Below are positions 2,587-64,000 of a DNA stretch of 64,000 nucleotides, piece by piece. A model generated the notes under the pieces. It was not told the DNA's origin. It was given only the letters and a program-made list of their open reading frames with translations, and made no database searches. How positions within the stretch are numbered: position 1 is the first letter of the stretch; each line of letters starts with the position of its first letter. Made by a program: the position numbers and the translations under genes. Origin of the DNA: Volvox africanus (lineage: Eukaryota; Chlorophyta; Chlorophyceae; Chlamydomonadales; Volvocaceae); NCBI GenBank assembly GCA_030268105.1, contig BSDZ01000019.1, forward strand, positions 1,590,001-1,654,000, read 5' to 3'.

Positions 2587-2982
2587 TTAAAACTCAACTG
2601 GGATTGGATCGTCTGGCGTCATTTAGCTAGTCCACGAGTCCAGTAATCCGCTCCAGTGTTGCGGCACATGAAAAACCCTAATGGACAGCAGCGGGAAGAC
2701 TTCATTCCTTCATTTTTGCAGTATTTATAGCAGCTGATCATTCAAATGCAGTAGTAAGCAATGCAGCTTGTACGCCTCAAATCTCCAGCTTTTCTCTGCA
2801 GCCCTAAGGGTTCAAAACCCCAAGCTCTTACCCTTATTTTAAGGCATGCACAGACCCCGCATCGCCATCCTCAAGCGTGTAGATGCGGGTTTATTGCTTA
2901 TAAAATAACAGCAATTTATATACTTGGAGAAACGAGCTTACCTGCAATGACCTTTGCACAGTCGTGTATCAAGTTAGGGGAA

Positions 2983-23835: not shown

Positions 23836-24567
23836 GGTTAAGTCCAGCGCCTCCGGCACCCAGGCCCCCGCGTCCATCCACAGTCGGTGAGCCTTACTAT
23901 GATCAGTGGCACTTTTTCCTGCTCACGCATGCATCCGTTTTGTTTACAAAGAACTGCAATGCTTCATAGCTCATCCCTGAATCCAGTATCGCAAACTTGT
24001 TTTCTACTGATGGCCGACATGTATACATTTGATCATGAACACGCACTGGCTTGCAATCGAATGGGAACAAGGTTGCAATTATGACGACTGCTGGCTGCAC
24101 TCATCAAGGCAATCCTTTATTTGCTAATCGCCTACTGTGCGTGAGCGTAGTTTCTTGTTACAAATAAAGGCTGTACGTATGCATAGCCACGCATGGACGT
24201 TTTCAGATATGTAGAGGGATGAGGAATGGAGGTATCAACGGGCCTCACATGGGGTGAAGCACCTGGCTGCTGTGGATATCGTGTAACGTATATGTACCTA
24301 ACTATCCCGAGCAGGGGGCCATATGGGTACCTGACTAGCATCATGCTGTATCTAGATGGGGCTAATGGGGGCGTCCTTGGTATCCAGCTAGATGCATGCG
24401 GCTGCTACATACCCATGGGTAGCCGAATACAGCTAAGGAGGTCGACCTTCTCCTAACCCCCTAAACCCTTAACCCTTGACCCTCCCTACAACCCTAAGCC
24501 ATCCCGCACAGCTGCTCGTTAATGCTATTAACAACGTTCGCCTGCGTGTTGTGTTGTTTGTCCGTAG
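23836..24567 (+). repeat. Truncated leading piece of the array (partial linker exon and intron 3)
   Basis: Identity with later units begins at 23840, which corresponds to 26595, inside the linker exon. Upstream, TATTTTAG|GG supplies a new acceptor, so a 51-bp exon (23836-23886) reads (x)GG-LSPAPPAPRPPRPSTV-G in the right frame and phase, ending at the usual GTGAGC donor. The rest is a normal intron 3. One base differs from later copies in the CACTTTTTCC stretch (CACTTGTTCC elsewhere). Confidence 0.85.
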
Positions 24568-27500
24568 GCAACCTGGCCTTGGGCAAGGTGGCTTACGTAT
24601 CAAGTCCATCAAATACATATTCGGCCAGTTATGCAGTCGATGGTAACCTGTTGACGTCGTCTTATTCTGGCGGATATGATGACCCCGCCAAATGGTTATC
24701 AGTGGACCTGGGCGGGGTGTGGGACATCAGCCGTATCCTGGTCTGGCCCTACCAGTACTGCTGCTGGTACTACAATGAGAACATAGAAGTTCGTGTTGGC
24801 TTGCGGAACATCAGCTCAGCAGACGACACATACGCCATTGGGGACAACCAGCTGGTGTGGAAGCAGAACGGGAGCACTCCTGGCAACCCAGACGCTCCAA
24901 CAGACCCATTCGTGATCAATCTGCGGCCTGCAGTCAAGGGCCGCTGGGTCACAGTGCAGAACTTCTATGCTTACCAGTGTAAGTGTGCGTGGGAGTAGTG
25001 TAGGATCATTTGAGATCGTCACATCTCAAATGAAAGACCTGTATCTTAGCTTCATGCCCCTATTTGTTTGAATGTATGTGCCTGCTGCTGGTATTTATAT
25101 ATGTATGCTACATATAAAATATAAAGCACCAAAGAGAGTGTTATCTATCATATTGACGACGGATCCGCACTGAATATCCAAAAACAAATAATACAGGTGG
25201 ACGGTTTATTTCAGGATATGATGAAGAACATACATAGAACATACCTCCGCTGCAGACCAACGGTGCAGATAGACCAACGGTGCAGATATACCAACGGCGT
25301 ACATGCAGTGCATCGACTGCTGGTTCATTGCTTGCCAAATATATATTCAAGCTGCATTCATAATGAATGAACGGATCTGATACAACAAATGAAGGTTTTT
25401 CATCTGTCATTACATACTTCTTATGTATGCCGTTTTAGCAACCTACATCCATATATTATTTGAAAACACACACACACATATACATATACATATACATATT
25501 CATATATGTATATGTATATGCATGCATGGATGGATGTATATGCTGTTGAGCCTAATACTTATAACGGTTACTATTATATATGTCAGCCCGGTAGATGTTG
25601 ATGAGGTCATTGCTTACCCAAACAAGTCATGCATATCCTGCCTCCACATCAACAACTGGGAGTCGTGCTTACAGCCTTCATCATTCCCCATCATTCCCTG
25701 TGCTGCTCAGGGGCATACCTCTACATTGCTGAGGTTGAAGTCTACGGTAACGCCAGTGAGTTCAGTGGCTTTTGGTATAGCATATATAGGATTATATGGT
25801 GGTGTAGCAATGTTGCATTCATTATCTTTTGTGTATAAAATGCTTATAACTTTATATATGCTTTATTATAAAAATATGTGAAATCATCCGTGTCATTCAT
25901 GTACTTCGCATCATGTCATATCTTGACACAAGATACCTAAGATCCTAAGATCTAAGATCCTAAGATAATGTAACACAAATATGATTACCATAGATTCTTG
26001 AGAATAAATCCTGCATATTCTCACGGATTGCCATGGACTTCGCAGCACTTGCGTCATAGTTGAGCAAGAGCTTGAGAGTGCTTGAAGTTCCTTTGTGTGA
26101 CACGACGCACGGTTGAATCTGTATGTTTCTAATCACCTAGCTGGATTATATCGAGCGAGCTGGACATACCCACCGGCAAGAATGGCTGGACTCCAGCTAC
26201 CTGTGAATAGCATGTTCCTGTAGGCATGTTGTTCGTAGGTAGCTGAGCTAATGATAATAAACATCAAATCATGTGCATTGTCCCTGCATACTTTCACAGG
26301 GCAGCAAGCATGGTGTCTAGGACCCATGGATTGGTGTCACGTCCTGTGTGACTGTGTGACCTGATGATAGCCACATATGCAAAGCTTGCATGATGACATG
26401 GTGCAGCATGTGTATTCCCACAAATCATGGTTAGACGGCCTTAAGGAAAGTATGTGACACTTGTGTAAGTATGTGTTATATCATGACATACGCTATTGTG
26501 CTGCAGGCACATCACCGCTGCCACCTTCGCCGCCCCCTCGCCCTCCTCGGCCAAGTCCTCCTCCTCTACCGCCATCACCCCCACCGATTCCACCAAGTCC
26601 AGCGCCTCCGGCACCCAGGCCCCCGCGTCCATCCACAGTCGGTGAGCCTTACTATGATCAGTGGCACTTGTTCCTGCTCACGCATGCATCCGTTTTGTTT
26701 ACAAAGAACTGCAATGCTTCATAGCTCATCCCTGAATCCAGTATCGCAAACTTGTTTTCTACTGATGGCCGACATGTATACATTTGATCATGAACACGCA
26801 CTGGCTTGCAATCGAATGGGAACAAGGTTGCAATTATGACGACTGCTGGCTGCACTCATCAAGGCAATCCTTTATTTGCTAATCGCCTACTGTGCGTGAG
26901 CGTAGTTTCTTGTTACAAATAAAGGCTGTACGTATGCATAGCCACGCATGGACGTTTTCAGATATGTAGAGGGATGAGGAATGGAGGTATCAACGGGCCT
27001 CACATGGGGTGAAGCACCTGGCTGCTGTGGATATCGTGTAACGTATATGTACCTAACTATCCCGAGCAGGGGGCCATATGGGTACCTGACTAGCATCATG
27101 CTGTATCTAGATGGGGCTAATGGGGGCGTCCTTGGTATCCAGCTAGATGCATGCGGCTGCTACATACCCATGGGTAGCCGAATACAGCTAAGGAGGTCGA
27201 CCTTCTCCTAACCCCCTAAACCCTTAACCCTTGACCCTCCCTACAACCCTAAGCCATCCCGCACAGCTGCTCGTTAATGCTATTAACAACGTTCGCCTGC
27301 GTGTTGTGTTGTTTGTCCGTAGGCAACCTGGCCTTGGGCAAGGTGGCTTACGTATCAAGTCCATCAAATACATATTCGGCCAGTTATGCAGTCGATGGTA
27401 ACCTGTTGACGTCGTCTTATTCTGGCGGATATGATGACCCCGCCAAATGGTTATCAGTGGACCTGGGCGGGGTGTGGGACATCAGCCGTATCCTGGTCTG

Positions 27501-28230
27501 GCCCTACCAGTACTGCTGCTGGTACTACAATGAGAACATAGAAGTTCGTGTTGGCTTGCGGAACATCAGCTCAGCAGACGACACATACGCCATTGGGGAC
27601 AACCAGCTGGTGTGGAAGCAGAACGGGAGCACTCCTGGCAACCCAGACGCTCCAACAGACCCATTCGTGATCAATCTGCAGCCTGCAGTCAAGGGCCGCT
27701 GGGTCACAGTGCAGAACTTCTATGCTTACCAGTGTAAGTGTGCGTGGGAGTAGTGTAGGATCATTTGAGATCGTCACATCTCAAATGAAAGACCTGTATC
27801 TTAGCTTCATGCCCCTATTTGTTTGAATGTATGTGCCTGCTGCTGGTATTTATATATGTATGCTACATATAAAATATAAAGCACCAAAGAGAGTGTTATC
27901 TATCATATTGACGACGGATCCGCACTGAATATCCAAAAACAAATAATACAGGTGGACGGTTTATTTCAGGATATGATGAAGAACATACATAGAACATACC
28001 TCCGCTGCAGACCAACGGTGCAGATAGACCAACGGTGCAGATATACCAACGGCGTACATGCAGTGCATCGACTGCTGGTTCATTGCTTGCCAAATATATA
28101 TTCAAGCTGCATTCATAATGAATGAACGGATCTGATACAACAAATGAAGGTTTTTCATCTGTCATTACATACTTCTTATGTATGCCGTTTTAGCAACCTA
28201 CATCCATATATTATTTGAAAACACACACAC

Positions 28231-28266
<36 letters not shown>

Positions 28267-31200
28267 TCATATATGTATATGTATATGTATATGCATGCAT
28301 GGATGGATGTATATGCTGTTGAGCCTAATACTTATAACGGTTACTATTATATATGTCAGCCCGGTAGATGTTGATGAGGTCATTGCTTACCCAAACAAGT
28401 CATGCATATCCTGCCTCCACATCAACAACTGGGAGTCGTGCTTACAGCCTTCATCATTCCCCATCATTCCCTGTGCTGCTCAGGGGCATACCTCTACATT
28501 GCTGAGGTTGAAGTCTACGGTAACGCCAGTGAGTTCAGTGGCTTTTGGTATAGCATATATAGGATTATATGGTGGTGTAGCAATGTTGCATTCATTATCT
28601 TTTGTGTATAAAATGCTTATAACTTTATATATGCTTTATTATAAAAATATGTGAAATCATCCGTGTCATTCATGTACTTCGCATCATGTCATATCTTGAC
28701 ACAAGATACCTAAGATCCTAAGATCTAAGATCTAAGATCTACCTAAGATCCTAAGATCTAAGATCCTAAGATAATGTAACACAAATATGATTACCATAGA
28801 TTCTTGGGAATAAATCCTGCGTTTTCTCACGGATTGCCATGGACTTCGCAGCACTTGCGTCATAGTTGAGCAAGAGCTTGAGAGTGCTTGAAGTTCCTTT
28901 GTGTGACACGACGCACGGTTGAATCTGTATGTTTCTAATCACCTAGCTGGATTATATCGAGCGAGCTGGACATACCCACCGGCAAGAATGGCTGGACTCC
29001 AGCTACCTGTGAATAGCATGTTCCTGTAGGCATGTTGTTCGTAGGTAGCTGAGCTAATGATAATAAACTAGGTCCTGTGTGACTGTGTGACCTGATGATA
29101 GCCACATATGCAAAGCTTGCATGATGACATGGTGCAGCATGTGTATTCCCACAAATCATGGTTAGACGGCCTTAAGGAAAGTATGTGACACTTGTGTAAG
29201 TATGTGTTATATCATGACATACGCTATTGTGCTGCAGGCACATCACCGCTGCCACCTTCGCCGCCCCCTCGCCCTCCTCGGCCAAGTCCTCCTCCTCTAC
29301 CGCCATCACCCCCACCGATTCCACCAAGTCCAGCGCCTCCGGCACCCAGGCCCCCGCGTCCATCCACAGTCGGTGAGCCTTACTATGATCAGTGGCACTT
29401 GTTCCTGCTCACGCATGCATCCGTTTTGTTTACAAAGAACTGCAATGCTTCATAGCTCATCCCTGAATCCAGTATCGCAAACTTGTTTTCTACTGATGGC
29501 CGACATGTATACATTTGATCATGAACACGCACTGGCTTGCAATCGAATGGGAACAAGGTTGCAATTATGACGACTGCTGGCTGCACTCATCAAGGCAATC
29601 CTTTATTTGCTAATCGCCTACTGTGCGTGAGCGTAGTTTCTTGTTACAAATAAAGGCTGTACGTATGCATAGCCACGCATGGACGTTTTCAGATATGTAG
29701 AGGGATGAGGAATGGAGGTATCAACGGGCCTCACATGGGGTGAAGCACCTGGCTGCTGTGGATATCGTGTAACGTATATGTACCTAACTATCCCGAGCAG
29801 GGGGCCATATGGGTACCTGACTAGCATCATGCTGTATCTAGATGGGGCTAATGGGGGCGTCCTTGGTATCCAGCTAGATGCATGCGGCTGCTACATACCC
29901 ATGGGTAGCCGAATACAGCTAAGGAGGTCGACCTTCTCCTAACCCCCTAAACCCTTAACCCTTGACCCTCCCTACAACCCTAAGCCATCCCGCACAGCTG
30001 CTCGTTAATGCTATTAACAACGTTCGCCTGCGTGTTGTGTTGTTTGTCCGTAGGCAACCTGGCCTTGGGCAAGGTGGCTTACGTATCAAGTCCATCAAAT
30101 ACATATTCGGCCAGTTATGCAGTCGATGGTAACCTGTTGACGTCGTCTTATTCTGGCGGATATGATGACCCCGCCAAATGGTTATCAGTGGACCTGGGCG
30201 GGGTGTGGGACATCAGCCGTATCCTGGTCTGGCCCTACCAGTACTGCTGCTGGTACTACAATGAGAACATAGAAGTTCGTGTTGGCTTGCGGAACATCAG
30301 CTCAGCAGACGACACATACGCCATTGGGGACAACCAGCTGGTGTGGAAGCAGAACGGGAGCACTCCTGGCAACCCAGACGCTCCAACAGACCCATTCGTG
30401 ATCAATCTGCGGCCTGCAGTCAAGGGCCGCTGGGTCACAGTGCAGAACTTCTATGCTTACCAGTGTAAGTGTGCGTGGGAGTAGTGTAGGATCATTTGAG
30501 ATCGTCACATCTCAAATGAAAGACCTGTATCTTAGCTTCATGCCCCTATTTGTTTGAATGTATGTGCCTGCTGCTGGTATTTATATATGTATGCTACATA
30601 TAAAATATAAAGCACCAAAGAGAGTGTTATCTATCATATTGACGACGGATCCGCACTGAATATCCAAAAACAAATAATACAGGTGGACGGTTTATTTCAG
30701 GATATGATGAAGAACATACATAGAACATACCTCCGCTGCAGACCAACGGTGCAGATAGACCAACGGTGCAGATATACCAACGGCGTACATGCAGTGCATC
30801 GACTGCTGGTTCATTGCTTGCCAAATATATATTCAAGCTGCATTCATAATGAATGAACGGATCTGATACAACAAATGAAGGTTTTTCATCTGTCATTACA
30901 TACTTCTTATGTATGCCGTTTTAGCAACCTACATCCATATATTATTTGAAAACACACACACACATATACATATACATATACATATTCATATATGTATATG
31001 TATATGCATGCATGGATGGATGTATATGCTGTTGAGCCTAATACTTATAACGGTTACTATTATATATGTCAGCCCGGTAGATGTTGATGAGGTCATTGCT
31101 TACCCAAACAAGTCATGCATATCCTGCCTCCACATCAACAACTGGGAGTCGTGCTTACAGCCTTCATCATTCCCCATCATTCCCTGTGCTGCTCAGGGGC

Positions 31201-34200
31201 ATACCTCTACATTGCTGAGGTTGAAGTCTACGGTAACGCCAGTGAGTTCAGTGGCTTTTGGTATAGCATATATAGGATTATATGGTGGTGTAGCAATGTT
31301 GCATTCATTATCTTTTGTGTATAAAATGCTTATAACTTTATATATGCTTTATTATAAAAATATGTGAAATCATCCGTGTCATTCATGTACTTCGCATCAT
31401 GTCATATCTTGACACAAGATACCTAAGATCCTAAGATCTAAGATCTAAGATCTACCTAAGATCCTAAGATCTAAGATCCTAAGATAATGTAACACAAATA
31501 TGATTACCATAGATTCTTGGGAATAAATCCTGCGTTTTCTCACGGATTGCCATGGACTTCGCAGCACTTGCGTCATAGTTGAGCAAGAGCTTGAGAGTGC
31601 TTGAAGTTCCTTTGTGTGACACGACGCACGGTTGAATCTGTATGTTTCTAATCACCTAGCTGGATTATATCGAGCGAGCTGGACATACCCACCGGCAAGA
31701 ATGGCTGGACTCCAGCTACCTGTGAATAGCATGTTCCTGTAGGCATGTTGTTCGTAGGTAGCTGAGCTAATGATAATAAACTAGGTCCTGTGTGACTGTG
31801 TGACCTGATGATAGCCACATATGCAAAGCTTGCATGATGACATGGTGCAGCATGTGTATTCCCACAAATCATGGTTAGACGGCCTTAAGGAAAGTATGTG
31901 ACACTTGTGTAAGTATGTGTTATATCATGACATACGCTATTGTGCTGCAGGCACATCACCGCTGCCACCTTCGCCGCCCCCTCGCCCTCCTCGGCCAAGT
32001 CCTCCTCCTCTACCGCCATCACCCCCACCGATTCCACCAAGTCCAGCGCCTCCGGCACCCAGGCCCCCGCGTCCATCCACAGTCGGTGAGCCTTACTATG
32101 ATCAGTGGCACTTGTTCCTGCTCACGCATGCATCCGTTTTGTTTACAAAGAACTGCAATGCTTCATAGCTCATCCCTGAATCCAGTATCGCAAACTTGTT
32201 TTCTACTGATGGCCGACATGTATACATTTGATCATGAACACGCACTGGCTTGCAATCGAATGGGAACAAGGTTGCAATTATGACGACTGCTGGCTGCACT
32301 CATCAAGGCAATCCTTTATTTGCTAATCGCCTACTGTGCGTGAGCGTAGTTTCTTGTTACAAATAAAGGCTGTACGTATGCATAGCCACGCATGGACGTT
32401 TTCAGATATGTAGAGGGATGAGGAATGGAGGTATCAACGGGCCTCACATGGGGTGAAGCACCTGGCTGCTGTGGATATCGTGTAACGTATATGTACCTAA
32501 CTATCCCGAGCAGGGGGCCATATGGGTACCTGACTAGCATCATGCTGTATCTAGATGGGGCTAATGGGGGCGTCCTTGGTATCCAGCTAGATGCATGCGG
32601 CTGCTACATACCCATGGGTAGCCGAATACAGCTAAGGAGGTCGACCTTCTCCTAACCCCCTAAACCCTTAACCCTTGACCCTCCCTACAACCCTAAGCCA
32701 TCCCGCACAGCTGCTCGTTAATGCTATTAACAACGTTCGCCTGCGTGTTGTGTTGTTTGTCCGTAGGCAACCTGGCCTTGGGCAAGGTGGCTTACGTATC
32801 AAGTCCATCAAATACATATTCGGCCAGTTATGCAGTCGATGGTAACCTGTTGACGTCGTCTTATTCTGGCGGATATGATGACCCCGCCAAATGGTTATCA
32901 GTGGACCTGGGCGGGGTGTGGGACATCAGCCGTATCCTGGTCTGGCCCTACCAGTACTGCTGCTGGTACTACAATGAGAACATAGAAGTTCGTGTTGGCT
33001 TGCGGAACATCAGCTCAGCAGACGACACATACGCCATTGGGGACAACCAGCTGGTGTGGAAGCAGAACGGGAGCACTCCTGGCAACCCAGACGCTCCAAC
33101 AGACCCATTCGTGATCAATCTGCGGCCTGCAGTCAAGGGCCGCTGGGTCACAGTGCAGAACTTCTATGCTTACCAGTGTAAGTGTGCGTGGGAGTAGTGT
33201 AGGATCATTTGAGATCGTCACATCTCAAATGAAAGACCTGTATCTTAGCTTCATGCCCCTATTTGTTTGAATGTATGTGCCTGCTGCTGGTATTTATATA
33301 TGTATGCTACATATAAAATATAAAGCACCAAAGAGAGTGTTATCTATCATATTGACGACGGATCCGCACTGAATATCCAAAAACAAATAATACAGGTGGA
33401 CGGTTTATTTCAGGATATGATGAAGAACATACATAGAACATACCTCCGCTGCAGACCAACGGTGCAGATAGACCAACGGTGCAGATATACCAACGGCGTA
33501 CATGCAGTGCATCGACTGCTGGTTCATTGCTTGCCAAATATATATTCAAGCTGCATTCATAATGAATGAACGGATCTGATACAACAAATGAAGGTTTTTC
33601 ATCTGTCATTACATACTTCTTATGTATGCCGTTTTAGCAACCTACATCCATATATTATTTGAAAACACACACACACATATACATATACATATACATATTC
33701 ATATATGTATATGTATATGCATGCATGGATGGATGTATATGCTGTTGAGCCTAATACTTATAACGGTTACTATTATATATGTCAGCCCGGTAGATGTTGA
33801 TGAGGTCATTGCTTACCCAAACAAGTCATGCATATCCTGCCTCCACATCAACAACTGGGAGTCGTGCTTACAGCCTTCATCATTCCCCATCATTCCCTGT
33901 GCTGCTCAGGGGCATACCTCTACATTGCTGAGGTTGAAGTCTACGGTAACGCCAGTGAGTTCAGTGGCTTTTGGTATAGCATATATAGGATTATATGGTG
34001 GTGTAGCAATGTTGCATTCATTATCTTTTGTGTATAAAATGCTTATAACTTTATATATGCTTTATTATAAAAATATGTGAAATCATCCGTGTCATTCATG
34101 TACTTCGCATCATGTCATATCTTGACACAAGATACCTAAGATCCTAAGATCTAAGATCTAAGATCTACCTAAGATCCTAAGATCTAAGATCCTAAGATAA

Positions 34201-52200: not shown

Positions 52201-52914
52201 TGCTGGTACTACAATGAGAACATAGAAGTTCGTGTTGGCTTGCGGAACATCAGCTCAGCAGACGACACATACGCCATTGGGGACAACCAGCTGGTGTGGA
52301 AGCAGAACGGGAGCACTCCTGGCAACCCAGACGCTCCAACAGACCCATTCGTGATCAATCTGCAGCCTGCAGTCAAGGGCCGCTGGGTCACAGTGCAGAA
52401 CTTCTATGCTTACCAGTGTAAGTGTGCGTGGGAGTAGTGTAGGATCATTTGAGATCGTCACATCTCAAATGAAAGACCTGTATCTTAGCTTCATGCCCCT
52501 ATTTGTTTGAATGTATGTGCCTGCTGCTGGTATTTATATATGTATGCTACATATAAAATATAAAGCACCAAAGAGAGTGTTATCTATCATATTGACGACG
52601 GATCCGCACTGAATATCCAAAAACAAATAATACAGGTGGACGGTTTATTTCAGGATATGATGAAGAACATACATAGAACATACCTCCGCTGCAGACCAAC
52701 GGTGCAGATAGACCAACGGTGCAGATATACCAACGGCGTACATGCAGTGCATCGACTGCTGGTTCATTGCTTGCCAAATATATATTCAAGCTGCATTCAT
52801 AATGAATGAACGGATCTGATACAACAAATGAAGGTTTTTCATCTGTCATTACATACTTCTTATGTATGCCGTTTTAGCAACCTACATCCATATATTATTT
52901 GAAAACACACACAC

Positions 52915-52968
<54 letters not shown>

Positions 52969-55900
52969 TCATATATGTATATGTATATGCATGCATGGAT
53001 GGATGTATATGCTGTTGAGCCTAATACTTATAACGGTTACTATTATATATGTCAGCCCGGTAGATGTTGATGAGGTCATTGCTTACCCAAACAAGTCATG
53101 CATATCCTGCCTCCACATCAACAACTGGGAGTCGTGCTTACAGCCTTCATCATTCCCCATCATTCCCTGTGCTGCTCAGGGGCATACCTCTACATTGCTG
53201 AGGTTGAAGTCTACGGTAACGCCAGTGAGTTCAGTGGCTTTTGGTATAGCATATATAGGATTATATGGTGGTGTAGCAATGTTGCATTCATTATCTTTTG
53301 TGTATAAAATGCTTATAACTTTATATATGCTTTATTATAAAAATATGTGAAATCATCCGTGTCATTCATGTACTTCGCATCATGTCATATCTTGACACAA
53401 GATACCTAAGATCCTAAGATCTAAGATCTAAGATCTACCTAAGATCCTAAGATCTAAGATCCTAAGATAATGTAACACAAATATGATTACCATAGATTCT
53501 TGGGAATAAATCCTGCGTTTTCTCACGGATTGCCATGGACTTCGCAGCACTTGCGTCATAGTTGAGCAAGAGCTTGAGAGTGCTTGAAGTTCCTTTGTGT
53601 GACACGACGCACGGTTGAATCTGTATGTTTCTAATCACCTAGCTGGATTATATCGAGCGAGCTGGACATACCCACCGGCAAGAATGGCTGGACTCCAGCT
53701 ACCTGTGAATAGCATGTTCCTGTAGGCATGTTGTTCGTAGGTAGCTGAGCTAATGATAATAAACTAGGTCCTGTGTGACTGTGTGACCTGATGATAGCCA
53801 CATATGCAAAGCTTGCATGATGACATGGTGCAGCATGTGTATTCCCACAAATCATGGTTAGACGGCCTTAAGGAAAGTATGTGACACTTGTGTAAGTATG
53901 TGTTATAGCATGACATACGCTATTGTGCTGCAGGCACATCACCGCTGCCACCTTCGCCGCCCCCTCGCCCTCCTCGGCCAAGTCCTCCTCCTCTACCGCC
54001 ATCACCCCCACCGATTCCACCAAGTCCAGCGCCTCCGGCACCCAGGCCCCCGCGTCCATCCACAGTCGGTGAGCCTTACTATGATCAGTGGCACTTGTTC
54101 CTGCTCACGCATGCATCCGTTTTGTTTACAAAGAACTGCAATGCTTCATAGCTCATCCCTGAATCCAGTATCGCAAACTTGTTTTCTACTGATGGCCGAC
54201 ATGTATACATTTGATCATGAACACGCACTGGCTTGCAATCGAATGGGAACAAGGTTGCAATTATGACGACTGCTGGCTGCACTCATCAAGGCAATCCTTT
54301 ATTTGCTAATCGCCTACTGTGCGTGAGCGTAGTTTCTTGTTACAAATAAAGGCTGTACGTATGCATAGCCACGCATGGACGTTTTCAGATATGTAGAGGG
54401 ATGAGGAATGGAGGTATCAACGGGCCTCACATGGGGTGAAGCACCTGGCTGCTGTGGATATCGTGTAACGTATATGTACCTAACTATCCCGAGCAGGGGG
54501 CCATATGGGTACCTGACTAGCATCATGCTGTATCTAGATGGGGCTAATGGGGGCGTCCTTGGTATCCAGCTAGATGCATGCGGCTGCTACATACCCATGG
54601 GTAGCCGAATACAGCTAAGGAGGTCGACCTTCTCCTAACCCCCTAAACCCTTAACCCTTGACCCTCCCTACAACCCTAAGCCATCCCGCACAGCTGCTCG
54701 TTAATGCTATTAACAACGTTCGCCTGCGTGTTGTGTTGTTTGTCCGTAGGCAACCTGGCCTTGGGCAAGGTGGCTTACGTATCAAGTCCATCAAATACAT
54801 ATTCGGCCAGTTATGCAGTCGATGGTAACCTGTTGACGTCGTCTTATTCTGGCGGATATGATGACCCCGCCAAATGGTTATCAGTGGACCTGGGCGGGGT
54901 GTGGGACATCAGCCGTATCCTGGTCTGGCCCTACCAGTACTGCTGCTGGTACTACAATGAGAACATAGAAGTTCGTGTTGGCTTGCGGAACATCAGCTCA
55001 GCAGACGACACATACGCCATTGGGGACAACCAGCTGGTGTGGAAGCAGAACGGGAGCACTCCTGGCAACCCAGACGCTCCAACAGACCCATTCGTGATCA
55101 ATCTGCGGCCTGCAGTCAAGGGCCGCTGGGTCACAGTGCAGAACTTCTATGCTTACCAGTGTAAGTGTGCGTGGGAGTAGTGTAGGATCATTTGAGATCG
55201 TCACATCTCAAATGAAAGACCTGTATCTTAGCTTCATGCCCCTATTTGTTTGAATGTATGTGCCTGCTGCTGGTATTTATATATGTATGCTACATATAAA
55301 ATATAAAGCACCAAAGAGAGTGTTATCTATCATATTGACGACGGATCCGCACTGAATATCCAAAAACAAATAATACAGGTGGACGGTTTATTTCAGGATA
55401 TGATGAAGAACATACATAGAACATACCTCCGCTGCAGACCAACGGTGCAGATAGACCAACGGTGCAGATATACCAACGGCGTACATGCAGTGCATCGACT
55501 GCTGGTTCATTGCTTGCCAAATATATATTCAAGCTGCATTCATAATGAATGAACGGATCTGATACAACAAATGAAGGTTTTTCATCTGTCATTACATACT
55601 TCTTATGTATGCCGTTTTAGCAACCTACATCCATATATTATTTGAAAACACACACACACATATACATATACATATACATATTCATATATGTATATGTATA
55701 TGCATGCATGGATGGATGTATATGCTGTTGAGCCTAATACTTATAACGGTTACTATTATATATGTCAGCCCGGTAGATGTTGATGAGGTCATTGCTTACC
55801 CAAACAAGTCATGCATATCCTGCCTCCACATCAACAACTGGGAGTCGTGCTTACAGCCTTCATCATTCCCCATCATTCCCTGTGCTGCTCAGGGGCATAC

Positions 55901-58900
55901 CTCTACATTGCTGAGGTTGAAGTCTACGGTAACGCCAGTGAGTTCAGTGGCTTTTGGTATAGCATATATAGGATTATATGGTGGTGTAGCAATGTTGCAT
56001 TCATTATCTTTTGTGTATAAAATGCTTATAACTTTATATATGCTTTATTATAAAAATATGTGAAATCATCCGTGTCATTCATGTACTTCGCATCATGTCA
56101 TATCTTGACACAAGATACCTAAGATCCTAAGATCTAAGATCTAAGATCTACCTAAGATCCTAAGATCTAAGATCCTAAGATAATGTAACACAAATATGAT
56201 TACCATAGATTCTTGGGAATAAATCCTGCGTTTTCTCACGGATTGCCATGGACTTCGCAGCACTTGCGTCATAGTTGAGCAAGAGCTTGAGAGTGCTTGA
56301 AGTTCCTTTGTGTGACACGACGCACGGTTGAATCTGTATGTTTCTAATCACCTAGCTGGATTATATCGAGCGAGCTGGACATACCCACCGGCAAGAATGG
56401 CTGGACTCCAGCTACCTGTGAATAGCATGTTCCTGTAGGCATGTTGTTCGTAGGTAGCTGAGCTAATGATAATAAACTAGGTCCTGTGTGACTGTGTGAC
56501 CTGATGATAGCCACATATGCAAAGCTTGCATGATGACATGGTGCAGCATGTGTATTCCCACAAATCATGGTTAGACGGCCTTAAGGTAAGTATGTGACAC
56601 TTGTGTAAGTATGTGTTATATCATGACATACGCTATTGTGCTGCAGGCACATCACCGCTGCCACCTTCGCCGCCCCCTCGCCCTCCTCGGCCAAGTCCTC
56701 CTCCTCTACCGCCATCACCCCCACCGATTCCACCAAGTCCAGCGCCTCCGGCACCCAGGCCCCCGCGTCCATCCACAGTCGGTGAGCCTTACTATGATCA
56801 GTGGCACTTGTTCCTGCTCACGCATGCATCCGTTTTGTTTACAAAGAACTGCAATGCTTCATAGCTCATCCCTGAATCCAGTATCGCAAACTTGTTTTCT
56901 ACTGATGGCCGACATGTATACATTTGATCATGAACACGCACTGGCTTGCAATCGAATGGGAACAAGGTTGCAATTATGACGACTGCTGGCTGCACTCATC
57001 AAGGCAATCCTTTATTTGCTAATCGCCTACTGTGCGTGAGCGTAGTTTCTTGTTACAAATAAAGGCTGTACGTATGCATAGCCACGCATGGACGTTTTCA
57101 GATATGTAGAGGGATGAGGAATGGAGGTATCAACGGGCCTCACATGGGGTGAAGCACCTGGCTGCTGTGGATATCGTGTAACGTATATGTACCTAACTAT
57201 CCCGAGCAGGGGGCCATATGGGTACCTGACTAGCATCATGCTGTATCTAGATGGGGCTAATGGGGGCGTCCTTGGTATCCAGCTAGATGCATGCGGCTGC
57301 TACATACCCATGGGTAGCCGAATACAGCTAAGGAGGTCGACCTTCTCCTAACCCCCTAAACCCTTAACCCTTGACCCTCCCTACAACCCTAAGCCATCCC
57401 GCACAGCTGCTCGTTAATGCTATTAACAACGTTCGCCTGCGTGTTGTGTTGTTTGTCCGTAGGCAACCTGGCCTTGGGCAAGGTGGCTTACGTATCAAGT
57501 CCATCAAATACATATTCGGCCAGTTATGCAGTCGATGGTAACCTGTTGACGTCGTCTTATTCTGGCGGATATGATGACCCCGCCAAATGGTTATCAGTGG
57601 ACCTGGGCGGGGTGTGGGACATCAGCCGTATCCTGGTCTGGCCCTACCAGTACTGCTGCTGGTACTACAATGAGAACATAGAAGTTCGTGTTGGCTTGCG
57701 GAACATCAGCTCAGCAGACGACACATACGCCATTGGGGACAACCAGCTGGTGTGGAAGCAGAACGGGAGCACTCCTGGCAACCCAGACGCTCCAACAGAC
57801 CCATTCGTGATCAATCTGCGGCCTGCAGTCAAGGGCCGCTGGGTCACAGTGCAGAACTTCTATGCTTACCAGTGTAAGTGTGCGTGGGAGTAGTGTAGGA
57901 TCATTTGAGATCGTCACATCTCAAATGAAAGACCTGTATCTTAGCTTCATGCCCCTATTTGTTTGAATGTATGTGCCTGCTGCTGGTATTTATATATGTA
58001 TGCTACATATAAAATATAAAGCACCAAAGAGAGTGTTATCTATCATATTGACGACGGATCCGCACTGAATATCCAAAAACAAATAATACAGGTGGACGGT
58101 TTATTTCAGGATATGATGAAGAACATACATAGAACATACCTCCGCTGCAGACCAACGGTGCAGATAGACCAACGGTGCAGATATACCAACGGCGTACATG
58201 CAGTGCATCGACTGCTGGTTCATTGCTTGCCAAATATATATTCAAGCTGCATTCATAATGAATGAACGGATCTGATACAACAAATGAAGGTTTTTCATCT
58301 GTCATTACATACTTCTTATGTATGCCGTTTTAGCAACCTACATCCATATATTATTTGAAAACACACACACACATATACATATACATATACATATTCATAT
58401 ATGTATATGTATATGCATGCATGGATGGATGTATATGCTGTTGAGCCTAATACTTATAACGGTTACTATTATATATGTCAGCCCGGTAGATGTTGATGAG
58501 GTCATTGCTTACCCAAACAAGTCATGCATATCCTGCCTCCACATCAACAACTGGGAGTCGTGCTTACAGCCTTCATCATTCCCCATCATTCCCTGTGCTG
58601 CTCAGGGGCATACCTCTACATTGCTGAGGTTGAAGTCTACGGTAACGCCAGTGAGTTCAGTGGCTTTTGGTATAGCATATATAGGATTATATGGTGGTGT
58701 AGCAATGTTGCATTCATTATCTTTTGTGTATAAAATGCTTATAACTTTATATATGCTTTATTATAAAAATATGTGAAATCATCCGTGTCATTCATGTACT
58801 TCGCATCATGTCATATCTTGACACAAGATACCTAAGATCCTAAGATCTAAGATCTAAGATCTACCTAAGATCCTAAGATCTAAGATCCTAAGATAATGTA

Positions 58901-61900
58901 ACACAAATATGATTACCATAGATTCTTGGGAATAAATCCTGCGTTTTCTCACGGATTGCCATGGACTTCGCAGCACTTGCGTCATAGTTGAGCAAGAGCT
59001 TGAGAGTGCTTGAAGTTCCTTTGTGTGACACGACGCACGGTTGAATCTGTATGTTTCTAATCACCTAGCTGGATTATATCGAGCGAGCTGGACATACCCA
59101 CCGGCAAGAATGGCTGGACTCCAGCTACCTGTGAATAGCATGTTCCTGTAGGCATGTTGTTCGTAGGTAGCTGAGCTAATGATAATAAACATCAAATCAT
59201 GTGCATTGTCCCTGCATACTTTCACAGGGCAGCAAGCATGGTGTCTAGGACCCATGGATTGGTGTCACGTCCTGTGTGACTGTGTGACCTGATGATAGCC
59301 ACATATGCAAAGCTTGCATGATGACATGGTGCAGCATGTGTATTCCCACAAATCATGGTTAGACGGCCTTAAGGTAAGTATGTGACACTTGTGTAAGTAT
59401 GTGTTATATCATGACATACGCTATTGTGCTGCAGGCACATCACCGCTGCCACCTTCGCCGCCCCCTCGCCCTCCTCGGCCAAGTCCTCCTCCTCTACCGC
59501 CATCACCCCCACCGATTCCACCAAGTCCAGCGCCTCCGGCACCCAGGCCCCCGCGTCCATCCACAGTCGGTGAGCCTTACTATGATCAGTGGCACTTGTT
59601 CCTGCTCACGCATGCATCCGTTTTGTTTACAAAGAACTGCAATGCTTCATAGCTCATCCCTGAATCCAGTATCGCAAACTTGTTTTCTACTGATGGCCGA
59701 CATGTATACATTTGATCATGAACACGCACTGGCTTGCAATCGAATGGGAACAAGGTTGCAATTATGACGACTGCTGGCTGCACTCATCAAGGCAATCCTT
59801 TATTTGCTAATCGCCTACTGTGCGTGAGCGTAGTTTCTTGTTACAAATAAAGGCTGTACGTATGCATAGCCACGCATGGACGTTTTCAGATATGTAGAGG
59901 GATGAGGAATGGAGGTATCAACGGGCCTCACATGGGGTGAAGCACCTGGCTGCTGTGGATATCGTGTAACGTATATGTACCTAACTATCCCGAGCAGGGG
60001 GCCATATGGGTACCTGACTAGCATCATGCTGTATCTAGATGGGGCTAATGGGGGCGTCCTTGGTATCCAGCTAGATGCATGCGGCTGCTACATACCCATG
60101 GGTAGCCGAATACAGCTAAGGAGGTCGACCTTCTCCTAACCCCCTAAACCCTTAACCCTTGACCCTCCCTACAACCCTAAGCCATCCCGCACAGCTGCTC
60201 GTTAATGCTATTAACAACGTTCGCCTGCGTGTTGTGTTGTTTGTCCGTAGGCAACCTGGCCTTGGGCAAGGTGGCTTACGTATCAAGTCCATCAAATACA
60301 TATTCGGCCAGTTATGCAGTCGATGGTAACCTGTTGACGTCGTCTTATTCTGGCGGATATGATGACCCCGCCAAATGGTTATCAGTGGACCTGGGCGGGG
60401 TGTGGGACATCAGCCGTATCCTGGTCTGGCCCTACCAGTACTGCTGCTGGTACTACAATGAGAACATAGAAGTTCGTGTTGGCTTGCGGAACATCAGCTC
60501 AGCAGACGACACATACGCCATTGGGGACAACCAGCTGGTGTGGAAGCAGAACGGGAGCACTCCTGGCAACCCAGACGCTCCAACAGACCCATTCGTGATC
60601 AATCTGCAGCCTGCAGTCAAGGGCCGCTGGGTCACAGTGCAGAACTTCTATGCTTACCAGTGTAAGTGTGCGTGGGAGTAGTGTAGGATCATTTGAGATC
60701 GTCACATCTCAAATGAAAGACCTGTATCTTAGCTTCATGCCCCTATTTGTTTGAATGTATGTGCCTGCTGCTGGTATTTATATATGTATGCTACATATAA
60801 AATATAAAGCACCAAAGAGAGTGTTATCTATCATATTGACGACGGATCCGCACTGAATATCCAAAAACAAATAATACAGGTGGACGGTTTATTTCAGGAT
60901 ATGATGAAGAACATACATAGAACATACCTCCGCTGCAGACCAACGGTGCAGATAGACCAACGGTGCAGATATACCAACGGCGTACATGCAGTGCATCGAC
61001 TGCTGGTTCATTGCTTGCCAAATATATATTCAAGCTGCATTCATAATGAATGAACGGATCTGATACAACAAATGAAGGTTTTTCATCTGTCATTACATAC
61101 TTCTTATGTATGCCGTTTTAGCAACCTACATCCATATATTATTTGAAAACACACACACACATATACATATACATATACATATTCATATATGTATATGTAT
61201 ATGCATGCATGGATGGATGTATATGCTGTTGAGCCTAATACTTATAACGGTTACTATTATATATGTCAGCCCGGTAGATGTTGATGAGGTCATTGCTTAC
61301 CCAAACAAGTCATGCATATCCTGCCTCCACATCAACAACTGGGAGTCGTGCTTACAGCCTTCATCATTCCCCATCATTCCCTGTGCTGCTCAGGGGCATA
61401 CCTCTACATTGCTGAGGTTGAAGTCTACGGTAACGCCAGTGAGTTCAGTGGCTTTTGGTATAGCATATATAGGATTATATGGTGGTGTAGCAATGTTGCA
61501 TTCATTATCTTTTGTGTATAAAATGCTTATAACTTTATATATGCTTTATTATAAAAATATGTGAAATCATCCGTGTCATTCATGTACTTCGCATCATGTC
61601 ATATCTTGACACAAGATACCTAAGATCCTAAGATCTAAGATCTAAGATCTACCTAAGATCCTAAGATCTAAGATCCTAAGATAATGTAACACAAATATGA
61701 TTACCATAGATTCTTGGGAATAAATCCTGCGTTTTCTCACGGATTGCCATGGACTTCGCAGCACTTGCGTCATAGTTGAGCAAGAGCTTGAGAGTGCTTG
61801 AAGTTCCTTTGTGTGACACGACGCACGGTTGAATCTGTATGTTTCTAATCACCTAGCTGGATTATATCGAGCGAGCTGGACATACCCACCGGCAAGAATG

Positions 61901-64000
61901 GCTGGACTCCAGCTACCTGTGAATAGCATGTTCCTGTAGGCATGTTGTTCGTAGGTAGCTGAGCTAATGATAATAAACATCAAATCATGTGCATTGTCCC
62001 TGCATACTTTCACAGGGCAGCAAGCATGGTGTCTAGGACCCATGGATTGGTGTCACGTCCTGTGTGACTGTGTGACCTGATGATAGCCACATATGCAAAG
62101 CTTGCATGATGACATGGTGCAGCATGTGTATTCCCACAAATCATGGTTAGACGGCCTTAAGGTAAGTATGTGACACTTGTGTAAGTATGTGTTATATCAT
62201 GACATACGCTATTGTGCTGCAGGCACATCACCGCTGCCACCTTCGCCGCCCCCTCGCCCTCCTCGGCCAAGTCCTCCTCCTCTACCGCCATCACCCCCAC
62301 CGATTCCACCAAGTCCAGCGCCTCCGGCACCCAGGCCCCCGCGTCCATCCACAGTCGGTGAGCCTTACTATGATCAGTGGCACTTGTTCCTGCTCACGCA
62401 TGCATCCGTTTTGTTTACAAAGAACTGCAATGCTTCATAGCTCATCCCTGAATCCAGTATCGCAAACTTGTTTTCTACTGATGGCCGACATGTATACATT
62501 TGATCATGAACACGCACTGGCTTGCAATCGAATGGGAACAAGGTTGCAATTATGACGACTGCTGGCTGCACTCATCAAGGCAATCCTTTATTTGCTAATC
62601 GCCTACTGTGCGTGAGCGTAGTTTCTTGTTACAAATAAAGGCTGTACGTATGCATAGCCACGCATGGACGTTTTCAGATATGTAGAGGGATGAGGAATGG
62701 AGGTATCAACGGGCCTCACATGGGGTGAAGCACCTGGCTGCTGTGGATATCGTGTAACGTATATGTACCTAACTATCCCGAGCAGGGGGCCATATGGGTA
62801 CCTGACTAGCATCATGCTGTATCTAGATGGGGCTAATGGGGGCGTCCTTGGTATCCAGCTAGATGCATGCGGCTGCTACATACCCATGGGTAGCCGAATA
62901 CAGCTAAGGAGGTCGACCTTCTCCTAACCCCCTAAACCCTTAACCCTTGACCCTCCCTACAACCCTAAGCCATCCCGCACAGCTGCTCGTTAATGCTATT
63001 AACAACGTTCGCCTGCGTGTTGTGTTGTTTGTCCGTAGGCAACCTGGCCTTGGGCAAGGTGGCTTACGTATCAAGTCCATCAAATACATATTCGGCCAGT
63101 TATGCAGTCGATGGTAACCTGTTGACGTCGTCTTATTCTGGCGGATATGATGACCCCGCCAAATGGTTATCAGTGGACCTGGGCGGGGTGTGGGACATCA
63201 GCCGTATCCTGGTCTGGCCCTACCAGTACTGCTGCTGGTACTACAATGAGAACATAGAAGTTCGTGTTGGCTTGCGGAACATCAGCTCAGCAGACGACAC
63301 ATACGCCATTGGGGACAACCAGCTGGTGTGGAAGCAGAACGGGAGCACTCCTGGCAACCCAGACGCTCCAACAGACCCATTCGTGATCAATCTGCAGCCT
63401 GCAGTCAAGGGCCGCTGGGTCACAGTGCAGAACTTCTATGCTTACCAGTGTAAGTGTGCGTGGGAGTAGTGTAGGATCATTTGAGATCGTCACATCTCAA
63501 ATGAAAGACCTGTATCTTAGCTTCATGCCCCTATTTGTTTGAATGTATGTGCCTGCTGCTGGTATTTATATATGTATGCTACATATAAAATATAAAGCAC
63601 CAAAGAGAGTGTTATCTATCATATTGACGACGGATCCGCACTGAATATCCAAAAACAAATAATACAGGTGGACGGTTTATTTCAGGATATGATGAAGAAC
63701 ATACATAGAACATACCTCCGCTGCAGACCAACGGTGCAGATAGACCAACGGTGCAGATATACCAACGGCGTACATGCAGTGCATCGACTGCTGGTTCATT
63801 GCTTGCCAAATATATATTCAAGCTGCATTCATAATGAATGAACGGATCTGATACAACAAATGAAGGTTTTTCATCTGTCATTACATACTTCTTATGTATG
63901 CCGTTTTAGCAACCTACATCCATATATTATTTGAAAACACACACACACATATACATATACATATACATATTCATATATGTATATGTATATGCATGCATGG
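23836..64000 (+). CDS. Giant modular protein of tandem F5/8 type C (discoidin-like) domains and polyproline linkers, partial at both ends
   Basis: Each 2.7-kb unit supplies a 411-bp exon and a 45-bp exon that together encode one F5/8 type C domain, and a 135-bp exon encoding a linker (SPLPPSPPPRPPRPSPPP and so on). Every intron is phase 1 and starts GTAAGT, GTGAGT or GTGAGC, so the exons chain indefinitely in frame, 197 residues per unit. Domain landmarks in unit numbering are NLALGK at 2-7, YAVDGN at 22-27, WLSVDLGG at 43-50, ISRILVWPY at 54-62, an adjacent Cys pair at 65-66, RWVTVQNF at 126-133 and LYIAEVEVYG at 141-150. N-glycosylation sequons lie at 81, 101 and 151; the last is created across the 45/135-bp exon junction. 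F5/8C domains usually bind carbohydrate or lipid, and Pro/Ser linkers are typical of algal cell-wall glycoproteins, so a secreted matrix lectin is the likely role (inference). The window shows 15 first exons, 14 second exons and 14 complete linkers plus a truncated first one. The start, signal peptide and end lie outside the array. Confidence 0.75.
24452..24499 (+). repeat. Degenerate telomere-like CCCTAAA tract in intron 3 (first of 15 copies)
   Basis: CCCCCTAAACCCTTAACCC is followed by CTTGACCCTCCC and CAACCCTAAG. This resembles degenerate CCCTAAA telomere repeats and also forms a pyrimidine-rich region 69-116 bases before the domain exon. The same block recurs at that offset before every 411-bp exon in the array. 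Confidence 0.7.
25006..25033 (+). repeat. Perfect 11-bp hairpin just inside intron 1 (first of 15 copies)
   Basis: TCATTTGAGAT at 25006-25016 pairs with ATCTCAAATGA at 25023-25033 across the 6-base loop CGTCAC. It lies 28-55 bases after the end of the 411-bp exon and is unchanged at the same offset in the other copies. Confidence 0.85.
25465..25536 (+). repeat. Palindromic CATATA/TATATG microsatellite in intron 1 (first of 15 copies)
   Basis: A CA run is followed by (CATATA)n and then its complement (TATATG)n. Arms 25483-25499 and 25504-25520 are a perfect 17-bp inverted repeat around TCAT. Copy number differs between units: 18 bp longer in unit 2, 6 bp in units 5-8 and 30 bp in unit 11. This is a main cause of unit length variation. 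Confidence 0.9.
27323..30053 (+). repeat. Array unit 2 (2731 bp)
   Basis: Exons are 27323-27733, 28484-28528 and 29238-29372. It has Gln at domain position 120, the microsatellite expanded by 18 bp, the 33-bp minisatellite expansion (about 28701-28772) present, the short form of intron 2, and GGAAAG before the linker exon. Confidence 0.97.
30054..32766 (+). repeat. Array unit 3 (2713 bp)
   Basis: Exons are 30054-30464, 31197-31241 and 31951-32085. It has Arg at position 120, the base-length microsatellite, the short intron 2 and GGAAAG before the linker. It has the same length and variant set as unit 4. Confidence 0.97.
32767..35479 (+). repeat. Array unit 4 (2713 bp)
   Basis: Exons are 32767-33177, 33910-33954 and 34664-34798. 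It matches unit 3 in all length markers and in Arg120, plus a private base change (TATATG for TATGTG near 34629). Confidence 0.97.
35480..38273 (+). repeat. Array unit 5 (2794 bp)
   Basis: Exons are 35480-35890, 36629-36673 and 37458-37592. It has Arg120, the +6 microsatellite, the long intron 2 with AATAATAATA before it, GGTAAG before the linker, and CAAATATAGG in intron 3. The last three markers reappear together only in units 9 and 10. Confidence 0.97.
38274..40992 (+). repeat. Array unit 6 (2719 bp)
   Basis: Exons are 38274-38684, 39423-39467 and 40177-40311. It has Gln120, the +6 microsatellite, the short intron 2, GGTAAG before the linker and CAAATAAAGG in intron 3. Confidence 0.97.
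40993..43711 (+). repeat. Array unit 7 (2719 bp)
   Basis: Exons are 40993-41403, 42142-42186 and 42896-43030. It has Gln120, the +6 microsatellite, and an intron-1 change (TTTTAGAAACC for TTTTAGCAACC near 41863) shared only with unit 8. It has a private change CGCAACCTTG near 43139 in intron 3. Confidence 0.97.
43712..46430 (+). repeat. Array unit 8 (2719 bp)
   Basis: Exons are 43712-44122, 44861-44905 and 45615-45749. It shares the TTTTAGAAACC variant, length and all other markers with unit 7, so the two are probably a very recent single-unit duplication. Confidence 0.97.
46431..49218 (+). repeat. Array unit 9 (2788 bp)
   Basis: Exons are 46431-46841, 47574-47618 and 48403-48537. It has Gln120, the base-length microsatellite, the long intron 2 with AATAATAATA, GGTAAG and CAAATATAGG. 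It is indistinguishable from unit 10 at every marker I compared. Confidence 0.97.
49219..52006 (+). repeat. Array unit 10 (2788 bp)
   Basis: Exons are 49219-49629, 50362-50406 and 51191-51325. It carries the same marker set as unit 9. Confidence 0.97.
52007..54749 (+). repeat. Array unit 11 (2743 bp)
   Basis: Exons are 52007-52417, 53180-53224 and 53934-54068. It has Gln120 and the longest microsatellite (+30 bp, all on the CATATA arm). It has the short intron 2, GGAAAG before the linker as in units 1-4, and a private TATAGCATGAC (TATATCATGAC elsewhere) near 53907. Confidence 0.97.
54750..57462 (+). repeat. Array unit 12 (2713 bp)
   Basis: Exons are 54750-55160, 55893-55937 and 56647-56781. 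It has Arg120, the base-length microsatellite and the short intron 2, but GGTAAG before the linker. This combination separates it from units 3 and 4. Confidence 0.97.
57463..60250 (+). repeat. Array unit 13 (2788 bp)
   Basis: Exons are 57463-57873, 58606-58650 and 59435-59569. It has Arg120, the long intron 2 with AATGATAATA as in unit 1, GGTAAG before the linker and CAAATAAAGG in intron 3. Confidence 0.97.
60251..63038 (+). repeat. Array unit 14 (2788 bp)
   Basis: Exons are 60251-60661, 61394-61438 and 62223-62357. It is the same as unit 13 except Gln at position 120. Confidence 0.97.
63039..64000 (+). repeat. Array unit 15, cut by the window edge
   Basis: The 411-bp exon is complete at 63039-63449 (Gln120). 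The window ends inside intron 1, in the CATATA microsatellite. The array shows no sign of ending here, so its true copy number is unknown. Confidence 0.97.

What the first reader, a model, noticed from the sequence alone, without database searches (positions are those of the whole stretch)
23836..64000. A forty-kilobase tandem array of exon triplets building a giant F5/8C-polyproline protein
Fifteen near-identical units in a row each carry exons of 411, 45 and 135 bp with canonical splice sites. Joining them gives an uninterrupted 197-residue period of one discoidin-like domain plus one Pro/Ser-rich linker. This implies a protein of at least 2,900 residues with 15 or more potential carbohydrate-binding domains on rigid HRGP-like rods. 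I know F5/8C domains and SPPP-type linkers separately in green algae, but not this intron-bearing, highly homogenised array; novelty is my inference.
Basis: partly seen in the sequence, partly recalled or inferred. Interest (0 to 1): 0.92.

Follow-up and report, generated by a model that had tools for sequence, protein, structure and literature searches.

The report
Giant Volvox lectin-like repeat gene
A Volvox alga carries what looks like a single gene whose near-identical, intron-bearing units repeat about 21 times in the assembly to spell a secreted protein of more than 4,000 amino acids, made of lectin-like domains on stiff proline rods, a natural system for seeing how a matrix protein grows by adding repeats.

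Summary
The window (Volvox africanus strain 1101-NZ-11) holds 15 copies of a 411-bp exon and 14 complete copies each of the 45- and 135-bp exons, all GT-AG, all phase 1, differing at one exon base. The gene starts with a likely signal-peptide exon outside the given range (22158-22242) and runs past the window to 21 near-identical units. Older exons lie beyond a roughly 51-kb retrotransposon-bearing stretch. The joined frame gives 4,122 residues to unit 21, with no stop.
PF00754 is confirmed. The domain looks F-type-lectin-like: it keeps the adjacent-cysteine pair and the DG cation motif, but 22 of 22 copies lack the fucose-binding residues. A gene model from another V. africanus assembly joins four units behind the same signal peptide, and a V. 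reticuliferus model has nine domains at nearly the same spacing, so the protein type is already in databases, uncharacterised. Domains cluster by gene, which indicates concerted evolution. Other models attach the same modules to gametolysin metalloproteases.
Best reading: a secreted, multivalent, proline-rich matrix protein whose length changes by unequal exchange. Full-length mRNA, 3' end, ligand and exact copy number are unproven.

The parts
22158..22242 (+). First coding exon: start codon (ATG at 22158; second in-frame ATG at 22164) and likely signal peptide MKMTSRASPMAASWILTVLLLREIALAS; donor GT at 22243, phase 1
   Evidence: the same N-terminus is in P0001 (VaNZ11_007670) and, at 90% identity over 30 residues, in P0012 (Vafri_7916). 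That it is a signal peptide is judged by eye; no predictor was run
23836..23886 (+). Truncated first linker exon (51 bp, GLSPAPPAPRPPRPSTV). Homology to the repeat unit begins at 23840, 4 nt inside this exon: left edge of the array
24568..26641 (+). Unit 1: domain exon A 24568-24978, exon B 25711-25755, linker exon 26507-26641
27323..29372 (+). Unit 2: A 27323-27733, B 28484-28528, linker 29238-29372
30054..32085 (+). Unit 3: A 30054-30464, B 31197-31241, linker 31951-32085
32767..34798 (+). Unit 4: A 32767-33177, B 33910-33954, linker 34664-34798
35480..37592 (+). Unit 5: A 35480-35890, B 36629-36673, linker 37458-37592
38274..40311 (+). Unit 6: A 38274-38684, B 39423-39467, linker 40177-40311
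40993..43030 (+). Unit 7: A 40993-41403, B 42142-42186, linker 42896-43030
43712..45749 (+). Unit 8: A 43712-44122, B 44861-44905, linker 45615-45749
46431..48537 (+). Unit 9: A 46431-46841, B 47574-47618, linker 48403-48537 (whole unit identical to unit 10)
49219..51325 (+). Unit 10: A 49219-49629, B 50362-50406, linker 51191-51325
52007..54068 (+). Unit 11: A 52007-52417, B 53180-53224, linker 53934-54068
54750..56781 (+). Unit 12: A 54750-55160, B 55893-55937, linker 56647-56781
57463..59569 (+). Unit 13: A 57463-57873, B 58606-58650, linker 59435-59569
60251..62357 (+). Unit 14: A 60251-60661, B 61394-61438, linker 62223-62357 (whole unit identical to unit 15)
63039..64000 (+). Unit 15, cut by the window end: A 63039-63449. 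Units 15-21 continue downstream on the contig (exon A of unit 21 at C19:1669845-1670255), then distal exons B21 at C19:1721249, L22 at 1726307, A22 at 1727123, B22 at 1728783, L23 at 1729553-1729666

Best explanation
This is one gene for a very large secreted protein of the Volvox extracellular matrix. A signal-peptide exon is followed by about 21 repeats of [F-type-lectin-like (F5/8C-fold) domain + 45-residue Pro/Ser/Arg linker]: 4,122 residues and about 449 kDa before modification up to the domain exon of unit 21, or 4,370 residues if the distal older exons are spliced in. Because every intron is phase 1, units can be added, lost or skipped without breaking the frame. Unequal crossing-over and gene conversion between the approximately 2.75-kb units have homogenised exons and introns alike. 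Proposed working: the linkers, probably hydroxylated and glycosylated as in other volvocine matrix proteins, form stiff spacers, and the evenly spaced domains act as many weak binding heads on matrix glycans or glycoproteins, cross-linking the gel; repeat number sets reach and avidity. Shown: exon/intron structure, open frame, Pfam family, predicted fold of a close relative, loss of the canonical fucose residues, related models with several joined units, within-gene clustering of domains. Inferred: full-length mRNA, secretion, hydroxylation, glycan binding, cross-linking.
Against: P0001 is a partial 182-residue model with one domain, and it carries Gln where unit 1 has Arg, so its domain exon is not unit 1: either a mapping artefact or real unit skipping. 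dN/dS between domain exons 21 and 22 is 0.037/0.031, no sign of purifying selection at that short range. Exon versus intron substitution density is only suggestive (1 of 591 exon columns against 18 of 2,089 ungapped intron columns, one-sided p 0.055). No 3' end or stop codon was located. The fold match to F-type lectins is tied within 1 Z with CBM32-type chitosan-binding modules, the array domain alone matches no F-type lectin by sequence, and the modelled protein is a relative, not the array domain. No ligand evidence at all.
Confidence: 0.68

Rival explanations
1. Same locus, but most mRNAs skip most units. Splicing from the first linker jumps to one or a few interchangeable domain exons, giving short proteins of variable length, as in oyster bindin, where alternative splicing sets the number of F-lectin repeats.
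For: All introns are phase 1, so any skip stays in frame. The model P0001 joins the first linker to a Gln-type domain exon, although unit 1 is Arg-type and the nearest Gln unit is unit 2. Oyster bindin precedent (PMC5712786, passages).
Against: P0012 joins four successive units and P0020 nine domains. The Gln could come from multi-mapping short reads in a near-identical array.
Confidence: 0.17
2. The number of units is an assembly product: the array is real but shorter or longer than 21, because PacBio reads from 20- and 30-kb libraries are unlikely to span about 57 kb of near-identical repeats.
For: 20 complete units carry only 19 substitution columns and 6 indel patterns; three adjacent pairs are identical. 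Assembly by Canu from PacBio Sequel subreads, Pilon-corrected (PMC10291315).
Against: The units carry a mosaic of length and base variants, multi-unit models exist in two other assemblies, and reported coverage is about 197x. This would change the count, not the gene.
Confidence: 0.08
3. A decaying or non-coding tandem duplication (satellite-like) in which only the first unit is used.
For: Introns are nearly as homogenised as exons; the array's distal side is interrupted by LTR retrotransposons; short-range dN/dS is near 1.
Against: No stop in the joined frame over 21 domain exons and the diverged distal exons; splice sites kept; in-frame indels only; multi-unit models in relatives.
Confidence: 0.07

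Closest known systems
Vafri_7916 (another V. africanus assembly, P0012; I take it to be the Japanese strain, recalled) and Vretifemale_7904 (V. reticuliferus, P0020), uncharacterised deposited models
   Same: P0012: same signal peptide at 90% identity, short first linker, then domain-linker units with a 200-residue period. P0020: nine domains, spacing mostly 197 residues, same linker type.
   Different: Their units are fewer in the models (4, partial; 9) and less uniform; within-gene sequences differ from those here. P0020 ends in a divergent domain. Their gene structure was not available to me.
Gametolysin-type metalloproteases with F5/8C modules (Vafri_18164, 15984, 16206, 18204; PF05548 + PF00754/PF22633)
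   Same: Same domain-linker modules, in one or two copies.
   Different: They carry an M11 protease before the modules; the present gene has the signal peptide directly followed by linker and domain. In this strain no close domain match lies beside an M11 match (both lists are lower bounds), though M11 genes lie just left of the window.
Oyster sperm bindin (F-type lectin repeats, 1-5 per protein)
   Same: Tandem F-lectin repeats with introns, change by intron recombination, variable repeat number, a retroelement beside the repeats; some isoforms lack the basic fucose triad (PMC5712786, passages).
   Different: 1-5 repeats that are diversified by positive selection; here about 21 repeats are homogenised, with Pro-rich rods between them.
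Human LPA kringle IV type 2 coding repeat
   Same: Coding VNTR of several kb per unit with introns and highly homologous units (5.6 kb per unit, 1 to about 40 units; PMC11462820, passages).
   Different: Kringle domain, two exons per unit; population copy-number variation is known there and untested here.
Pherophorins and other volvocine hydroxyproline-rich glycoproteins
   Same: Globular domains separated by a proline-rich rod in the Volvox matrix (PMC9818292, passages).
   Different: Pherophorins have two globular domains and one rod; their domain is another family (recalled); here one domain type repeats about 21 times.

Membership tests
F5/8 type C (PF00754 / PF22633) | Profile match above the curated cut-off | tested here: met
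   PF00754 35.4 bits (cut-off 28.2), PF22633 33.7 (27.8)
F5/8 type C (PF00754 / PF22633) | Discoidin-like jelly-roll fold | tested here: met
F-type lectin (fucolectin) | Nearest fold and sequence are F-type lectins | tested here: inconclusive
F-type lectin (fucolectin) | Contiguous cysteines that contact fucose (Cys82-Cys83 in AAA) | tested here: met
   CC in 22 of 22 domains of this gene and 64 of 70 domain instances examined; role from PMC5712786 passages. That they form a disulphide here is not tested
F-type lectin (fucolectin) | Cation motif h2DGx | tested here: met
   AVDGN in the unit; motif definition from PMC5712786
F-type lectin (fucolectin) | Fucose motif HX24RXDX4(R/K) | tested here: not met
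   22 of 22 domains read YQYCCWYY where Pleodorina P0008 reads RQDCCQER; the RxDCCxx(R/K) segment is in 2 of 70 instances; the His position falls on Gly in the profile alignment to FBP32
Coding VNTR of LPA KIV-2 type | Tandem intron-bearing coding units, near identical in exon and intron | tested here: met
Coding VNTR of LPA KIV-2 type | Copy number varies among individuals | not testable with these tools
   One assembly of this strain; the related genes differ in sequence and number, but only as protein models
Volvocine matrix HRGP | SP/PPP-rich rod | tested here: met
   45-residue linker with 26 Pro and 7 Ser
Volvocine matrix HRGP | Secretion signal | tested here: inconclusive
   N-terminal hydrophobic stretch by eye, kept in P0001 and P0012; no signal-peptide predictor was available
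Volvocine matrix HRGP | Hydroxyproline and matrix location | not testable with these tools
   needs protein chemistry
Gametolysin (Peptidase M11) | PF05548 domain in the same protein | tested here: not met
   Signal exon is followed directly by linker and domain; none of the 133 M11 matches lies between the signal exon and C19:1744000 (130 of 163 candidates scored)

The most novel reading that the evidence does not exclude
A coding VNTR in a green alga: repeat number differs between strains and is set by unequal exchange within the gene. Together with frame-neutral unit skipping, it tunes the length and avidity of a giant matrix cross-linker built from a repurposed F-type lectin fold that no longer binds fucose. 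It would be the algal counterpart of LPA KIV-2 in gene mechanics and of oyster bindin in domain type, with the largest F-type-lectin-like array I am aware of (recalled, not searched).
Probability: 0.35. Interest if true: 0.78.

Novelty: new variant of a known kind. Interest (0 to 1): 0.62.

Why it matters
Volvox is a main model for how a cell wall became a tissue-like matrix. Here a matrix protein appears to lengthen one module at a time by DNA exchange, and the state can be read directly: this strain, another V. africanus assembly and V. reticuliferus each carry their own version. This makes testable how fast repeat number changes, whether length alters matrix mechanics or hatching, and how short-read gene sets lose such genes (the deposited model found here is a 182-residue fragment). 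The same modules are also attached to gametolysin proteases, suggesting a shared targeting function. Loss of the fucose site while the paired cysteines and fold persist raises the question of the new ligand.

Tried and rejected
Separate gene per unit: rejected as a leading idea, because unit 1 has no in-frame ATG (0 of 197 codons), the exons of 20 units differ at one site only, and I saw no signal exon inside the units I read. Antisense gene: the longest open frame on the minus strand of unit 1 is 97 codons, nothing of note. Gametolysin at the C-terminus of this gene: looked for after the fusions appeared; listed M11 matches on C19 are to the left (nearest C19:1576823-1588420, minus strand) or beyond 2.3 Mb, none between the signal exon and C19:1744000. 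3' terminal exon: a tblastn of P0020 (whole, and its last part), P0018 and P0012 against the contig to 1744000 found, downstream of the array, only exon A22, and reading the sequence after L23 gave no safe terminal exon. Purifying selection within the array: not shown. NCBIfam gave only chance matches. Pfam gave nothing at E 0.01 for four long ORFs left of the array. A first structure model (11 rows) was weak, pLDDT 64, and was replaced by an 18-row model, pLDDT 80; both rank 3cqo first with VIA. Is it in print: searches of the open PMC library for Volvox + discoidin (5 papers), Volvox + F-type lectin (1), Volvox + 'type C domain' + extracellular matrix (0), gametolysin/Volvox/matrix/polyproline (14, 12 listed), volvocine + lectin domain + extracellular matrix (0), Volvox/pherophorin/tandem/genome/metalloproteinase (18, 10 listed) and a loose one (2,269, 8 listed). 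The titles and abstract starts that I saw do not describe this gene; I read into four papers only (PMC10291315: outline and two sections; PMC5712786, PMC11462820, PMC9818292: passages). No V. carteri or Chlamydomonas protein appeared by name in the three protein searches, whose word-based sensitivity and length limits do not allow a statement of absence.
Full report
WHAT IS THERE. The window is C19:1590001-1654000 of a genome held as 140,993,249 bases in 126 contigs. A protein deposited as VaNZ11_007670, partial, Volvox africanus (P0001), lies on a contig of 3,111,861 bp, the length of C19, so the source is V. africanus strain 1101-NZ-11 from Thailand (PMC10291315, outline and sections 8 and 20 seen: 141.0 Mb in 129 contigs, Canu from PacBio Sequel reads at about 197x, Pilon, gene prediction with transcriptome data).

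Joined from the ATG at 22164 they read 2,938 residues with no stop. Within the window the A exons differ at one base (Arg in 6, Gln in 9 of 15); the 14 B exons are identical, as are the 14 linker exons.

BEYOND THE GIVEN COORDINATES. Upstream, an exon at 22158-22242 starts MKMTSRASPMAASWILTVLLLREIALAS, a likely signal peptide (by eye), and joins in phase to a truncated 51-bp linker exon at 23836-23886; homology to the repeat unit begins 4 nt inside that exon. Downstream, the search of the genome gave 63 domain matches (a lower bound), of which 21 are near-identical A exons on C19, the last ending at C19:1670255. I joined the window to 90 kb of the same contig. After A21 the intron holds two copies, in opposite orientation, of a short element and then, from about 85 to 124 kb in window-based coordinates, a tandem array of LTR retrotransposons with a long pol-like frame (reverse transcriptase, integrase and chromodomain recognised by eye). 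Beyond it are B21 (131249; 86% identity over a 287-column stretch), L22 (136307-136441), A22 (137123-137527), B22 (138783) and L23 (139553-139666). A22 is 6 bp shorter and L23 21 bp shorter, both in frame, with splice sites kept. The joined frame is 4,122 residues to A21 (449 kDa unmodified) and 4,370 residues, with 67 N-glycosylation sequons, if the distal exons belong. That they do is inference; no 3' end was found.

HOMOGENISATION. Aligning the 20 complete units: 1 substitution column in 591 exon columns, 18 in 2,233 intron columns (144 of these gapped), 6 indel patterns, all in introns; three adjacent pairs of units are identical over their whole length (9/10, 14/15, 18/19). Exon depletion is suggestive only (one-sided Fisher p 0.055 against 2,089 ungapped intron columns). 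From inside L22 through the intron before A22, the distal unit shares identical runs of 354, 159 and 121 bp with unit 20, although exon A22 differs from A21 at 14 of 402 compared bases; this looks like patchwork conversion. Between A21 and A22, dN 0.037 and dS 0.031, so no purifying selection is visible at this range; against the 71%-identical copy on C25 (336 nt compared), dN 0.179 and dS 0.858.

RELATIVES. Three protein searches (11, 8 and 4 proteins at E 0.001) gave, among Volvox models: P0012 (Vafri_7916, partial; from another V. africanus assembly, which I take to be the Japanese strain, recalled) with the same signal peptide, a short first linker and four joined units; P0020 (Vretifemale_7904, V. 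reticuliferus) with nine domains, 6 of 8 spacings being 197 residues; and P0014, P0015, P0017, P0019, in which an M11 gametolysin domain precedes one or two modules (P0014 begins inside the M11 domain). P0021 combines seven F5/8C domains with two SUEL lectin domains. In a tree of 42 domains (4 of the 22 of this gene and 38 from 12 of the proteins), those of this gene form one clade (97/84), those of Vafri_7916 another (99/95), and Vretifemale_7904 domains 1-8 with one from P0018 a third (93/89, drawn open); 9 of 38 inner branches are well supported overall. Domains therefore resemble their neighbours in the gene more than their counterparts in the related gene: concerted evolution. In this strain no close domain match lies beside an M11 match, but M11 genes lie about 2-13 kb left of the window on the other strand.

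HOW IT MOST LIKELY WORKS. Secreted by its signal peptide, the protein would be a chain of about 21 globular heads on 45-residue rods with 26 prolines each. The prolines of pherophorin rods are hydroxylated (PMC9818292, passages); the same is assumed here. The even spacing and identical heads fit a multivalent cross-linker with repeat number as the tuning variable. This is inference; no ligand, location or full-length mRNA is shown. The deposited one-domain fragment P0001 carries Gln where unit 1 has Arg, so it was built on another unit: a short-read artefact or genuine unit skipping, which phase-1 introns would allow.

OTHER ARRAYS. The same genome has a four-unit array on C8 with a 2,520-bp period and a cluster of 27 weaker domain matches on C100 over 399-563 kb, with some equal-scoring repeats about 6.7 kb apart (not fetched). 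Repeat growth in this domain family is thus not unique to the window.

VERDICT. Observation confirmed and extended; interpretation right in outline. The architecture has uncharacterised relatives in two other Volvox assemblies and mechanical parallels in oyster bindin and human LPA (PMC5712786 and PMC11462820, passages). New variant of a known kind; interest 0.62.

Noticed in passing
C19 beyond the window, 85-124 kb in window-based coordinates (L024-L028): Tandem array of about five LTR retrotransposons (Ty3-type by eye) at spacings of 5.9-8.3 kb, apparently sitting in the intron that follows exon A21 of this gene.
   Followed up: partly
window 17053-17267; downstream at 80377-80591 and 81095-81307 (window-based): A roughly 215-bp element at 97-98% identity occurs once left of the array and twice, in opposite orientation, in the intron after A21: a likely short mobile element.
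   Followed up: no
C8:4990226-4998167 (L032-L033): Second homogenised array of F5/8C domain units, four copies, period 2,520 bp, 32% identical to the present domain; no adjacent-cysteine pair in the aligned stretch.
   Followed up: partly
C100:399623-562619: Cluster of 27 F5/8C-type domain matches (38-49% identity), some with identical scores at about 6.7-kb spacing; perhaps another giant or multigene array.
   Followed up: no
intron between linker and domain exon, e.g. window 24440-24510: Degenerate CCCTAAA/CCCTTAA runs resembling algal telomere repeats (recalled) occur in the units that I read by eye.
   Followed up: no
C19:1576823-1588420, just left of the window, minus strand: Gametolysin (M11) matches adjacent to the array; in another V. 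africanus assembly several M11 models carry the same F5/8C-linker modules.
   Followed up: partly
P0021 (Vretifemale_9373): V. reticuliferus protein with seven F5/8C domains and two SUEL (galactoside/rhamnose-binding) lectin domains joined by Pro-rich rods.
   Followed up: no
window 1-13700, minus strand: Long open frames (e.g. 2983-5106, 7210-8559, 11120-13693) without a Pfam match at E 0.01; part of 2983-5106 looks by eye like an organelle RNA-binding OPR/RAP protein (recalled).
   Followed up: partly
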